DNA from: Tribonema minus
Lineage: Eukaryota; Sar; Xanthophyceae; Tribonematales; Tribonemataceae
Assembly (NCBI GenBank): GCA_017506865.1
Contig: JAFCMP010000556.1
Coordinates: forward strand, 372,001 to 436,000
DNA length: 64,000 bases
Reading direction: 5' to 3'
Below the pieces are notes generated by a model that was given only the letters and a program-made list of their open reading frames with translations, was not told the DNA's origin and did not search any database. The position numbers and the translations under genes are program-made. Each line of letters starts with the position of its first letter. The stretch's first letter is position 1. This document shows positions 2,158 through 62,118 of this stretch, piece after piece.

Positions 2158-3293
2158 CTCACCTGAGCGCTGCTGCACAGCCTCCCCCTCCGCCGCCGCC
2201 GCCGCCGCCACCACCTTGCAGCTGAGATCAGGCCTTACCTTTGCCCTATCTCAGACTATCTGAGGCCCCCACGAGGCCTAGCTCTAGCCCTAACCCTAAC
2301 CCTACGTCTGACCCGAGCCGTGTGCGCGGCTAGAGTCGCATCACCGAGAGGAGCCCCCCCTCTCCCCACCCCCCCTCCACCACCCATTTTCTGGTACCCG
2401 AGCGCTGCTGCTGTACCCTAACCCTAACCCTAACCCTAACTCTAACCCTAATCCTAACCCTGCTCTCATCGACGGTACGCCGTACACATTTCAGGGTCCT
2501 GCGGAGAGCCACGTTGAAGTTCGACTTGAACGTGGTGACGTCCCGCACCGCGCATGCGCGCTGGCGGAGACGAAAGGGAGTTAGTTCGCGGAGTCCTGGT
2601 GCCGGCGTGACAGACGTGGTACGCGGTGCGTTGCGAGGGTTTGCAACAGTTGGAGTAGCGCTCACCTGAGCGCTGCTGCACAGCCTCCCCCTCCGCCGAC
2701 GCCGCCGCCGCGCCGCAGCTCCCCGGCGGCGGTACATGGGGCTGACATCAGGCCTGACCCTTGCCCTATCTGAGGCCTCTCGTTGTAACCCTGGAATGAC
2801 ACCTGCCCTGGCTGTGTACGCGGCTACGCTGCCCAGGGCACGGCACTGAGAAGACCCCCCCCTCTCTCCGCCCCCCTCTACCCCCTTTGCGTACCTGAGC
2901 GCTGCTGCACAGCCTCCCTCCGCCGTCGCCGCCGCACCGCAGCTCCCCGGCGGCGGCAACCCCCTGACAGCGCCAGCCCGCTTATTGTACCTGAGTGCTG
3001 CTGTCAACCCCACCCTTATCCGAACCCTAACCCTAGTTCTCATTAATGGTTACGCCATACGCATTTCAGAGTCGTGCTCACCTGAGCGCTGCTGCACAGC
3101 CTCCTCCGCCGCTGCCGCCGCCGCCGCCGCGCTGCAGCTGCCCGGCGGCGGCGCCCCCCTGTACAGCGCCAGCCCCGCTGATTGTACCTGAGCGCTGCTG
3201 CTGTAAACCCAACCCTAATTCTCACCCTAACCCTAACCCTAACTCCCATCGACGGGTACGCCATTATGATACACATTTCAGGGTCGCGCTTAC
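2158..3293 (-). repeat. Donor-edge copies of the 3599-3294 exon
   Basis: The exon end (GC-rich Ala/Gln codons ending gcagcagcgctcag) plus donor recurs downstream on the minus strand with donors near 3081, 2894, 2665 and 2162; shorter pieces lie near 3187, 2992 and 2400. Units are roughly 190-250 bp. Most carry one CCCTAA tract (3216-3244, 3020-3035, 2414-2460, 2290-2305, 2088-2114). Confidence 0.85.
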
Positions 3294-61100: not shown

Positions 61101-62118
61101 CACTGAATTTTCGCAATTTGGAGACCTGGTTCTACAAGTGGACAAGATAGGGCGGATGCGGCGGCGGTGATTGATAGAGGTGGACATGTGCTACTTCAAT
61201 TGCTCGCCATAACTTCAAACCATGGCCGATTGCAAGCCACCCGCAGTGGTTCTTGAGGTACCGAACCTCTCATTTGGCACGCGGCAGTGCCGGCGCGGCA
61301 GCAGCGGCGGTGTGTGCGCAGCAGCCGCAGCGGCGCCATTGACCTTGAGGCCACTCTCTCCGCCATTCATCCACGCAGTGCGCCCGGCATTAGAATCAGG
61401 TTTTTAATACTATGTAGTGCTGACCCTAAGGCGACGGACGGGCGTGGCGATCACAGTTATTGCCAAGTCCGTCCAATCATCACCTGAACTTTGTGCACGT
61501 GTGTGTGTGTGTGTGTGGCCTCATGCACGAGCGTGTGTACACCCGACCCCCCACCCCCAAAGCCACAGCAGCAGCAGCAGCAGCAGCGACTTCGTGCGCG
61601 CCGCACGCAGCGTGGCGGCGATGGGTCGCGCCGACCGCAAAGTTTGCTGGGGCCGTCGAAGCGACCATCAACGCACGGCGCCGCAGAAGCTCGGCTGCGT
61701 ATGTGCATGCTTATCAACACGGAACCCAAACCACAGCGCCTGCGTGCGGCACCGCGGCGCAGCGGCGACGGTCTCGACATGCGCCTGGGCCCTCAATTTC
61801 ATTCAGTCACTGCAGCAGGCCGAATCTCTTTTCTTTCGCTCTCGATCGCCAACCTCCGTATTTGCAAAAATCTGCGCGCATGCATGACCACTAACCCCTC
61901 TTACAACACCACCTTTTCATGTGCGCCGCAGCGTGGCGGCGACGGACGCGGCGATCGCGGCGCGCATCGGCGGCGGCGGCAGCAGCGGCAGCAGCGCGCT
62001 GCGCTTCTACGACGGCGCCGCGCACCTCGGCATGTTCGGCACGCCCAAGTGGCTGCGGCGCGCGCTAGACGCGGAGCGCCGCGTCATGACCGTCGACAAC
62101 CCCGTCTTCATGATCTAG
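46107..62118 (+). CDS. ACL5: Thermospermine/spermidine synthase family aminopropyltransferase, nine exons
   Basis: Exons 46107-46246, 48131-48221, 49145-49276, 50444-50536, 52042-52125, 54183-54271, 58442-58559, 59991-60136 and 61932-62118 sum to 1080 nt (359 aa); every phase agrees (2,0,0,0,0,2,0,2). The enzyme transfers an aminopropyl group from decarboxylated SAM to a polyamine. Visible: [14 protein letters not shown] and [15 protein letters not shown] (N-terminal strands), [36 protein letters not shown], glycine motif [80 protein letters not shown] and C-terminal TVDNPVFMI. The (D)xADPxEaGP form is closer to plant/algal thermospermine synthase (ACL5) than to spermidine synthase (SSDPIGP-like), so ACL5 is preferred; product specificity is not proven. 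Introns total about 14.9 kb and consist largely of copied exon edges. Confidence 0.92.
47128..47176. repeat. 20-bp direct repeat in synthase intron 1
   Basis: 'gcgctctctcgcctgacgca' occurs twice head to tail (47131-47171). The rest of intron 1 (46247-48130) has a few CCCTAA-like stretches (47599-47640) and no gene. Confidence 0.7.
48618..49144 (+). repeat. Acceptor-edge array of synthase exon 3, one copy carrying CCCTAA repeats
   Basis: Copies of the exon start (gtcatcgactgcgcgccg-tt) begin near 48621, 48788 and 48958; the real exon starts at 49145 (spacing ~168, 170, 187). In the outermost copy the middle of the exon sequence is replaced by four CCCTAA units (48640-48665), after which exon sequence (gtgct-g-cggcaagtcgcag) resumes. 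Confidence 0.88.
49277..49560 (+). repeat. Donor-edge copies of synthase exon 3
   Basis: About 55 bp of exon end (coding [17 protein letters not shown]) plus donor gtgagtc recur with donors at 49416 and 49548, 139 and 132 bp apart. All three donors are followed within ~25 nt by 'ttgaagtt'. Confidence 0.93.
50100..50197 (+). repeat. Short interspersed repeat with non-LTR-like tail, synthase intron 3
   Basis: 'acacatgtagattctggttg' and 'caggctggacatcca', then a diverged tail 'ccccctgaaaacgaaaataa'. Same family as 13790-13902. A poly-G run lies just upstream (50031-50048). Confidence 0.7.
50230..50443 (+). repeat. Acceptor-edge copy of synthase exon 4
   Basis: The (CTG)n-rich polypyrimidine tract, acceptor and first exon bases (gcag|gtgttca) recur at 50265, 179 bp upstream of the real start at 50444. 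Confidence 0.75.
50537..50880 (+). repeat. Donor-edge copies of synthase exon 4
   Basis: The exon end (atgctgcggcatcggtccgt, ggagaagtgcatc) recurs at 50610-50652 with a donor at 50653, and at 50749-50800 with the donor lost. 'gcggtgctgtgc' and TTAGGG-like stretches belong to the unit. Confidence 0.85.
51262..51369 (+). repeat. R110 interspersed repeat, copy 2
   Basis: Plus-orientation copy of the 6690-6812 repeat, near full length. It lies in synthase intron 4. Confidence 0.8.
52126..52412 (+). repeat. Donor-edge copies of synthase exon 5, with R110 fragment
   Basis: The exon end (gatgacgaccgcttggaagt, ctactaccag) recurs with donor 52250 and, decayed, at 52406. A truncated R110 repeat (52136-52172) sits in the first unit. 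Confidence 0.85.
52920..52940. repeat. Short telomere-like tract
   Basis: About two and a half CCCTAA units in synthase intron 5, where 52450-53450 otherwise shows no gene and no clear edge copies. Confidence 0.6.
53460..53530 (+). repeat. Non-LTR tail repeat, synthase intron 5
   Basis: 'ttagatgccattcatttggg' and 'cgcgccctgagcgagaattg' ending 'atgaaaagtac'. It matches 36245-36311 closely. Confidence 0.75.
53620..54182 (+). repeat. Acceptor-edge copies of synthase exon 6, with R110 copy 3
   Basis: The acceptor and exon start (gtgcag|gatgc-cacgcgtgg) recur at 53774 (about 40 bp of good match) and, shorter, at 53630. A near full-length R110 repeat occupies 53955-54070. Confidence 0.85.
54272..55690 (+). 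repeat. Donor-edge array of synthase exon 6, seven copies
   Basis: The exon end (gacatcgcagaccccataga, ggccggcccag) plus donor recur with donor positions near 54437, 54551, 54668, 55349 (donor destroyed), 55449 (GC/CT change), 55570 and 55670. Typical spacing is 100-120 bp. Units also share 'caaa' and a ttgaagtt block. A 588-bp inverted-repeat element interrupts the array after the third copy. Confidence 0.93.
54707..55294. mobile_element. 588-bp element with terminal inverted repeats, TA-flanked
   Basis: The left end TACCGTAAATGCCCGAGTAA and on (54707-54736) is matched inversely at 55264-55294, nearly perfect for about 28 bp including C/G runs. TA at both outer ends fits a TA target duplication of Tc1/mariner-type (IS630) elements. 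Inside, subterminal 'cttgtaaacgccc' motifs repeat. No transposase is visible, so it would be non-autonomous. Confidence 0.82.
57830..58441 (+). repeat. Acceptor-edge array of synthase exon 7, four copies
   Basis: The acceptor and about 70 bp of exon start (tacgtgctgtacac-gaagag) recur with starts at 57836, 57990, 58137 and 58301, then the real exon at 58442; spacing 154, 147, 164 and 141 bp. The intron part (aaggttttcataga-tgtgga, agcctcaagccgctta) is repeated in each unit. Confidence 0.93.
58560..59215 (+). repeat. Donor-edge copy of synthase exon 7
   Basis: The exon end (cacacagagcgggcc, tcgctcaacacgca) and donor recur with a donor at 59200. The interval of 640 bp is 229 bp once the 411-bp insertion is removed. 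A 38-bp unit is duplicated at 59046-59122. Confidence 0.85.
58620..59030 (-). mobile_element. 411-bp element, copy 2
   Basis: Inverted, same-length copy of 39706-40116. It begins 'gtacttttattaat' (the complement of the tail) and ends 'aaagtgcctaa'. It interrupts the exon 7 donor repeat, so it inserted after that repeat formed. Confidence 0.82.
59736..59990 (+). repeat. Acceptor-edge copies of synthase exon 8
   Basis: About 70 bp of exon start (gtcatccaccgcaccctcgc, gccgtacacggtcgacgtgc) recur with starts at 59736 and 59872, before the real exon at 59991; spacing 136 and 119 bp. The unit contains 'catcagtcaaaagttcaaca'. Confidence 0.93.
60137..61190 (+). repeat. Donor-edge array of synthase exon 8, five copies
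   Basis: The exon end (gccgcggacgcggcggcggt, ggagatgag) with donor recurs near 60273, 60433, 60563 (donor lost), 60708 and 61180. The wide last interval contains a truncated R110 repeat (61012-61070). Confidence 0.92.
61600..61931 (+). repeat. Acceptor-edge copies of synthase exon 9
   Basis: The acceptor with exon start (cgcag|cgtggcggcga) recurs at 61611 and, weaker, at 61763; the real exon starts at 61932. A (CAG)n run (61566-61588) and a (GT)n run (61500-61516) lie just upstream. Confidence 0.82.

What the first reader, a model, noticed from the sequence alone, without database searches (positions are those of the whole stretch)
2158..61931. Introns built from tandem copies of neighbouring exon edges, in five of five multi-exon genes
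In the VASt, RBMX2-like, RPA3, cyclin H and synthase genes, almost every internal exon edge is repeated into the adjoining intron. Copies of the 5' edge plus acceptor lie only upstream; copies of the 3' edge plus donor lie only downstream. Units are 100-250 bp, 2-8 per edge, decaying with distance. More than 25 edges show this, on both strands. This points to a systematic intron-growth process (local tandem duplication across splice sites), leaving many decoy splice sites that the spliceosome must ignore. I cannot say whether it has been described.
Basis: partly seen in the sequence, partly recalled or inferred. Interest (0 to 1): 0.92.

Follow-up and report, generated by a model that had tools for sequence, protein, structure and literature searches.

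The report
Introns grown from copied exon edges
In the yellow-green alga Tribonema minus, many introns seem to have grown by local head-to-tail duplications that often carry along the edge of the neighbouring exon and its splice site, leaving a decaying series of decoy splice sites.

Summary
In 35 genes of three families elsewhere in the genome, 68 of 242 exon ends have a same-strand copy on the predicted side, 2 of 242 on the wrong side, 0 of 484 inverted; 28 of 35 genes show it. In 38 modelled introns, direct repeats cover 29.7% of the sequence (inverted 0.9%, Markov control 0), rising with intron length. Exon-only changes are synonymous in 18 of 18 cases; copy-only changes fall on all codon positions (27, 28, 43), so copies look like decaying non-coding relics. 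Two units searched match only their own locus. Repeats are about as common inside introns as at their ends, so the likeliest cause is frequent local tandem duplication filtered by selection on exons, not a process aimed at splice sites. Overstated: 'almost every edge' (54 of 172 internal edges) and decay with distance (6 of 10 arrays). Single boundary-crossing duplications are known; ten searches found no genome-wide case. RNA evidence is missing.

The parts
7030..7203 (-). VASt-domain exon (extent of the HMM match); both ends are copied into the flanking sequence
   Evidence: PF16016 match C553:379030-379203, E 2.8e-7; copies
7313..7770 (-). three copies of the 5' end of the VASt match (7313-7357, 7505-7554, 7719-7770), upstream only
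   Evidence: identity 0.82-0.87; 0 downstream, 0 inverted
6566..6870 (-). two copies of the 3' end of the VASt match (6805-6870, 6566-6624), downstream only
   Evidence: identity 0.80-0.83; 0 upstream, 0 inverted
25870..26026 (-). RBMX2-like exon 2; donor GTGGGC starts at 25869
   Evidence: tblastn 73.6% identity, E 2.7e-23; annotated T. minus protein P0003 continues from this donor to DQRSTILAV; start from the P0003 frame
25633..25696 (-). copy of the last 64 nt of RBMX2-like exon 2, followed by GTGGGC
   Evidence: identity 0.97
24024..24065 (-). copy of the 5' edge of RBMX2-like exon 4 (true first exon base 23972)
   Evidence: identity 0.98
23161..23527 (-). two copies of the 3' end of RBMX2-like exon 4 (23447-23527, 23161-23230); I placed a donor after 23754, but P0003 reads through that site to a stop
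   Evidence: identity 0.90 and 0.74; P0003
43813..43922 (-). cyclin-H-like exon 2, donor GCAAGT (GC type)
   Evidence: sequence, junctions
44235..44439 (-). two copies of the 5' edge of cyclin-H-like exon 2 with CAG acceptor (44390-44439, 44235-44259)
   Evidence: identity 0.90 and 0.96
43662..43691 (-). copy of the 3' edge of cyclin-H-like exon 2
   Evidence: identity 0.90
42543..42698 (-). cyclin-H-like exon 3
   Evidence: tblastn to human cyclin H 51.7% over 29 aa, E 4.7e-6; Cyclin_N E 0.063, under its cut-off
42827..43198 (-). three copies of the 5' edge of cyclin-H-like exon 3 (42827-42885, 42977-43047, 43141-43198)
   Evidence: identity 0.90, 0.89, 0.77
42213..42454 (-). two copies of the 3' edge of cyclin-H-like exon 3, each followed by GTGCGC (42421-42454, 42213-42243)
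   Evidence: identity 0.91 and 0.94; sequence
37831..38180 (-). two copies of the 3' edge of a late cyclin-H-like exon (last exon base 38305): 38095-38180, 37831-37904
   Evidence: identity 0.94 and 0.73
58442..58559 (+). synthase exon A (weak spermine/spermidine synthase match)
   Evidence: PF01564 E 0.0086, under its cut-off; junctions
57991..58352 (+). three copies of the 5' edge of synthase exon A with CGCAG acceptor; a fourth, weaker one is visible near 57836
   Evidence: identity 0.86-0.89; the fourth read by eye
59155..59189 (+). copy of exon A nt -51 to -16 from its donor, without the splice site
   Evidence: identity 0.94
59991..60136 (+). synthase exon B
   Evidence: junctions TGCAG|GTCATC and GATGAG|GTGTGT
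59735..59921 (+). two copies of the 5' edge of synthase exon B (59735-59795 with AG lost, 59863-59921 with AG kept)
   Evidence: identity 0.90 and 0.98
60229..60707 (+). four copies of the 3' edge of synthase exon B, three with GT, one with GA
   Evidence: identity 0.82-0.91; 0 wrong side, 0 inverted

Best explanation
Tribonema minus introns lengthen by frequent local tandem duplications of roughly 90-260 bp. When the duplicated stretch spans an intron-exon boundary, the product holds two copies of the exon edge with its splice site. Only the outer choice (first donor, last acceptor) keeps the mRNA intact, so the inner copy becomes intron: donor-edge copies end up downstream of their exon, acceptor-edge copies upstream. 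Further duplications build arrays. Copies then decay much like neutral DNA while the exon stays under protein selection. Shown here: direct orientation, side, single-locus units (two searched), codon-position pattern of exon and copies, share of intron length. Inferred: the duplication event itself (end joining or replication slippage with little or no homology) and that the decoys are ignored in splicing.
For: Side and strand: 68 of 242 correct, 2 of 242 wrong side, 0 of 484 inverted. Donor-edge copies in the 5' half of the intron 19 of 21, acceptor-edge copies in the 3' half 17 of 17. Direct repeats cover 29.7% of 32,083 intron nt in 38 introns against 0.9% inverted; mean share 0.11 in the short third, 0.24 in the middle, 0.38 in the long; rho 0.52, p 8e-4. 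Copies drift: in 10 arrays, exon-only changes fall 1, 0, 17 on codon positions (18 of 18 synonymous), copy-only changes 27, 28, 43; copy-copy divergence at positions 1-2 is 0.13, about twice the exon-copy value of 0.06. The intron part of the unit is copied too: 28 of 38 copies at z>=4, namely 17 of 17 acceptor and 11 of 21 donor copies; the spacer recurs beyond the nearest copy in 17 of 25. 18 young two-copy tandem pairs overlap by -1 to 6 bp. Two units match only their own locus. The annotated protein P0003 uses the outer site at the two RBMX2-like edges it contains that have inner copies (exon 2 donor, exon 4 acceptor).
Against: In 8 of 25 nearest copies no second spacer is detectable, and only 11 of 21 donor copies share their intron flank. 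Some exon copies are too similar to the exon for such diverged flanks (L012 donor 66 of 66 and 64 of 66; RBMX2-like 0.97; L013 0.98). Copy-only changes are synonymous in 39 of 98 against 0.253 for random changes, so copies are not perfectly neutral-looking; exon changes between successive duplications could cause this (inference). Donor copies hold a narrow 40-76 nt of exon, not the spread that random breakpoints predict (12 cases; KS p 7e-4 against one assumed uniform range). One exon hit (L017) has a wrong-side match that I did not explain. No RNA data were available.
Confidence: 0.8

Rival explanations
1. A process aimed at exon edges: something about splice junctions (chromatin, R-loops, transcription, spliceosome) makes duplications start there, so edges are hot spots.
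For: The last 50 nt of exons have copies in 0.29 (donor) and 0.24 (acceptor) of cases against 0.07-0.24 for intron windows out to 350 nt; donor copies contain a strikingly constant 40-76 nt of exon.
Against: The profile is nearly flat along the intron, and exon copies are easier to detect because the exon side is conserved.
Confidence: 0.15
2. Exon-to-decoy gene conversion or repeated re-copying keeps some decoys close to the exon (concerted evolution), on top of tandem duplication. This can be true together with the best explanation.
For: L012: three copies share the same exon end point (-66), two are 97-100% identical to the exon while flanks are about 72-77% identical or unalignable; L013 and RBMX2-like similar.
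Against: Pooled over 10 arrays, copy-copy divergence at codon positions 1-2 is about twice exon-copy divergence, as expected without conversion; only a handful of outliers.
Confidence: 0.2
3. Transposable or introner elements insert near splice sites with long target-site duplications, so the spacer is the inserted element.
For: Repeat-spacer-repeat layout is common among direct pairs of at least 88% identity (55 of 70 with the repeat under half the period), though that identity filter favours exon-only stretches.
Against: A spacer and an array unit each match only their own locus in 158 Mb (the tool warns that no match does not prove rarity); spacers recur in the next unit in 17 of 25; near inverted pairs 1 against 296 direct.
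Confidence: 0.05
4. Assembly artefact.
For: Tandem arrays are prone to assembly error; the sequencing technology was not checked (the genome paper is not held).
Against: Copies differ from the exon by 0-20% in the modelled introns with a biological codon-position pattern; a false duplication would be near-identical throughout. Same pattern in 28 of 35 genes.
Confidence: 0.03
5. The copies are functional exon parts (alternative or mutually exclusive exons).
For: Most copies keep GT or AG (29 of 38).
Against: Copies accumulate replacement changes (59 of 98 copy-only changes), and 10 of 38 have alignment gaps, 9 of those totalling a number not divisible by three; nearest copies hold part of an exon.
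Confidence: 0.03

Closest known systems
Intron gain by tandem duplication across an intron-exon boundary in potato RdRp (PMC4974935; abstract and passages seen)
   Same: A duplicated stretch crosses an intron-exon boundary and the copied splice signals come along; the same gene also had an intron-only tandem duplication of 83 bp.
   Different: One event in one gene, and it made a new intron; here existing introns lengthen, in 28 of 35 sampled genes, with multi-copy arrays.
Rogers-type intron gain from duplicated AGGT (recalled; discussed in passages of PMC4974935; Drosophila cases in PMC2891723, abstract and outline seen)
   Same: Tandem duplication as the mutation.
   Different: Signature of that model (intron ends resembling the opposite exon) found in 0 of 38 introns.
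Introner elements (recalled; e.g. Amoebophrya, PMC7789003, search listing only)
   Same: Large-scale intron sequence gain in a protist.
   Different: Introners are dispersed families; the two units searched here are single-locus.
Intronic minisatellites / internal tandem repeats (recalled)
   Same: Local head-to-tail repeats in introns.
   Different: Units include exon edges and splice sites, with few, diverged copies.

Membership tests
Local tandem duplication (minisatellite-like intron growth) | Direct, locus-specific copies close together | tested here: met
   296 direct against 1 inverted near pairs in 276,816 bases; two units single-locus
Local tandem duplication (minisatellite-like intron growth) | Whole unit, spacer included, recurs | tested here: inconclusive
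   17 of 25 nearest copies; four of the 25 had been picked for high exon identity
Rogers-type intron gain | Intron 3' end resembles upstream exon end, intron 5' start resembles downstream exon start | tested here: not met
   0 of 38 and 0 of 38; old gains could have decayed
Introner elements | Similar elements dispersed at many loci | tested here: not met
   two units searched against 158 Mb: own locus only
Introner elements | Recently gained intron positions | not tested
   no related genome was available
Exon duplication / mutually exclusive exons | Copy holds a whole exon with both splice sites and keeps its reading frame | tested here: not met
   nearest copies hold 21-97 nt of exons whose matched part is 97-219 nt; replacement changes and gaps

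The most novel reading that the evidence does not exclude
Splice junctions of T. minus are themselves hot spots of a dedicated copying process that lifts a near-constant piece of exon (about 40-76 nt at donors) into the intron and later refreshes it from the exon by conversion, so that introns carry maintained arrays of decoy exon edges.
Probability: 0.1. Interest if true: 0.87.

Novelty: new variant of a known kind. Interest (0 to 1): 0.64.

Why it matters
How introns grow is usually inferred from transposons or left open (general knowledge). Here the growth steps are still readable in sequence, with the conserved exon as a reference against which each copy can be dated. It is also a natural experiment on splice-site choice: if the sample is typical of the genome, very many near-copies of real splice sites lie within a few hundred bases of them and are tolerated (extrapolation, not counted).

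Tried and rejected
Transposon or introner origin: two units searched genome-wide, own locus only. Rogers-type intron gain: 0 of 38. Selection keeping the copies: first suggested by the excess of third-position mismatches, dropped after polarising the changes, though 39 of 98 copy-only changes are synonymous against 0.253 expected. A general claim of gene conversion: only a few outliers support it. Strong loss of decoy splice sites: 29 of 38 kept, p 0.03 against one neutral rate (0.887) and p 0.85 against another (0.774), so undecided. RPA3: not found. Words like ACTTCAAC and TTAGGG are common; not shown to mark breakpoints.

Rows dropped or chosen: loci were genes with several exon matches. 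Kinesin 76 of 132 hits (20 genes fetched), MCM 23 of 27 hits (all six genes; four hits left out because they overlapped a stronger hit in the profile and looked like copies), proteasome 22 of 45 hits (9 loci fetched; other genes with two or more hits were not). Introns modelled 51, of which 38 with margin >=4 were counted (45 with margin >=1.5); splice sites were fitted, not checked against RNA. One of the two wrong-side cells is an HMM hit (L019) that itself looks like a copy and was kept. One search, with queries up to 100 nt that can reach the other half of short exons, gave wrong-side matches in 2 of 38 donor and 5 of 38 acceptor edges; with queries limited to half an exon and 60 nt, one search gave 2 of 242. 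share loci and are not independent; 22 young tandem pairs, of which 4 with a third copy were left out.

Searches for prior reports: (titles and abstract starts listed); none described such a genome-wide pattern, but subscription papers and the T. minus genome paper (recalled; its DOI was tried and is not held) are outside that library. PMC8226300 and PMC6564038: passages only.
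Full report
WHAT AND WHERE. The window lies in a 158-Mb, 554-contig genome. A search with a 396-aa window ORF found two proteins among 7991 scored candidates; one, P0002, is 'JKP88DRAFT_250517 [Tribonema minus]', whose first about 190 residues match the window ORF at 16.1 kb by eye, and both are listed with a 569,972-base contig. The RBMX2-like gene of the window is JKP88DRAFT_172908 of T. minus, listed with a contig of the same length. 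So the window is from the yellow-green alga Tribonema minus (Xanthophyceae).

THE OBSERVATION IN THE WINDOW. A self-comparison gives 142 direct and 5 inverted repeats closer than 3 kb. In 50-nt steps, simple-sequence steps skipped, 165 of 1256 windows have a direct copy within 1 kb and 7 an inverted one; the stretches 14-18 kb, 26-28 kb, 32-38 kb, 46-48 kb and 62-64 kb have none. I placed 19 exon edges in four genes; 14 have copies, 1 to 4 each, on the predicted side. The synthase gene is the clearest to read: three copies (a fourth by eye) of the acceptor edge before exon A, two before exon B, four donor-edge copies after exon B. Gene names: VASt is supported, RBMX2-like strongly, cyclin H moderately, the synthase weakly, RPA3 not.

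GENOME-WIDE TEST. I took exon matches of three protein families from the whole genome: kinesin, MCM and proteasome, fetched 20, 6 and 9 genes with several matches, and compared up to 60 nt of each exon end with up to 2 kb on either side, on both strands. The 5' end has a copy upstream in 37 of 121 and downstream in 0 of 121; the 3' end has one downstream in 31 of 121 and upstream in 2 of 121; inverted 0 of 484. 28 of 35 genes have at least one correct-side copy. A random local copy-paste would put copies on both sides and strands; duplication of a contiguous stretch across the junction gives the side seen.

PRECISE JUNCTIONS. With splice sites fitted by alignment to kinesin or MCM relatives and splice consensus, 38 of 51 modelled introns were taken as reliable. 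Donor-edge copies occur in 12 of 38, acceptor-edge copies in 10 of 38, inverted 0; wrong-side matches with the longer queries of that call, 2 and 5 of 38. 19 of 21 donor-edge copies lie in the 5' half, 17 of 17 acceptor-edge copies in the 3' half. Periods are 92-264, median 151.5. Copies of one edge often share nearly the same exon end point (for example -66 three times), as expected if an array grows from one first event.

INTRON GROWTH. In those 38 introns (32,083 nt, median 748.5) direct repeats within the same intron cover 29.7%, inverted 0.9%, Markov controls 0; the mean covered share rises with intron length from 0.11 to 0.24 to 0.38 (rho 0.52, p 8e-4). Introns with any repeat: 3 of 12 short, 9 of 12 middle, 14 of 14 long.

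WHAT HAPPENS TO THE COPIES. Simple mismatch counts show a strong third-position excess (0.06, 0.06, 0.20), which alone could mean coding constraint on the copies. Polarising with the 10 arrays of two or more copies largely resolves it: where copies agree and the exon differs, changes fall 1, 0, 17 on codon positions and 18 of 18 are synonymous; where one copy differs, they fall 27, 28, 43, with 39 of 98 synonymous against 0.253 for random changes; 11 columns were ambiguous. Copy-copy divergence at positions 1-2 is 0.13, about twice exon-copy divergence of 0.06. The exon is protein-coding and constrained; the copies drift. The remaining third-position excess among copy changes is expected if synonymous exon changes happened between successive duplications (inference). 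Splice dinucleotides survive in 29 of 38 copies (16 of 21 GT, 13 of 17 AG), between two neutral expectations, so there is no clear sign that decoys are removed. The annotated RBMX2-like protein uses the outer site at the two edges it contains that have inner copies (exon 2 donor, exon 4 acceptor), but reads through the exon 4 donor that I had placed; whether that annotation rests on RNA was not checked.

IS IT ABOUT EXON EDGES? The chance that a 50-nt window has a direct copy in its intron is 0.29 and 0.24 for the last 50 nt of exons at donor and acceptor, 0.07-0.24 through the first 350-400 nt of intron (lowest, 0.07, just after the donor), 0.02-0.05 at 50-100 nt inside exons and 0 deeper; 0 of 10 mid-exon pieces have copies. 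Because the exon itself is conserved its copies are easier to see. I therefore read edges as the visible part of general intron duplication. Locus flanks, a mix of exon, intron and intergenic DNA, give 0.045.

OPEN POINTS. Donor copies hold a narrow share of exon (40-76 nt, 12 cases). A few exon copies are far more similar to the exon than their flanks are to each other, hinting at conversion from the exon or at non-tandem copying. In 8 of 25 nearest copies the spacer does not visibly recur, and only 11 of 21 donor copies, against 17 of 17 acceptor copies, share their intron flank at z>=4. Young tandem pairs overlap by -1 to 6 bp (18 of 22 pairs; four with a third copy left out), which fits end joining or slippage but does not choose between them.

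NOVELTY. A tandem duplication across an intron-exon boundary is known from single genes such as potato RdRp (PMC4974935, passages), and tandem duplication of coding sequence has been proposed as a source of new introns (PMC2891723, abstract). A genome in which such duplication recurs in most sampled genes and accounts for a large part of intron length was not found in my ten literature searches (listed under Tried and rejected). I file it as a new variant of a known kind.

Noticed in passing
window 16090-17300 (+), 19520-20743 (+), 33011-34201 (-): Three related long ORFs (by eye); a database search with one of them found only itself and one T. minus protein. No Pfam match for the two tested.
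   Followed up: partly
window 34886-36199 (+): 437-aa ORF without Pfam match, with a 42-nt identical direct repeat at 34852-34893 and 36271-36312 flanking it, possibly the ends of a mobile element.
   Followed up: no
window 2415-2461, 40718-40752, 44112-44152, 48639-48665, 56000-56028; other loci: Short interstitial TTAGGG-like arrays.
   Followed up: no
window and fetched loci: ACTTCAAC and AAGTTGAAGT are among the commonest words (no expectation computed) and often stand near ends of copied units (read by eye).
   Followed up: no
L012 intron 1513: Three donor-edge copies with the same exon end point, two 97-100% identical to the exon despite diverged flanks.
   Followed up: partly
window 63506-63994 (+): Ankyrin-repeat ORF.
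   Followed up: no
MCM and proteasome HMM hits: Some extra domain matches overlap a stronger neighbour in the profile, a few with in-frame stops; they look like decoy copies and could mislead gene finders.
   Followed up: no
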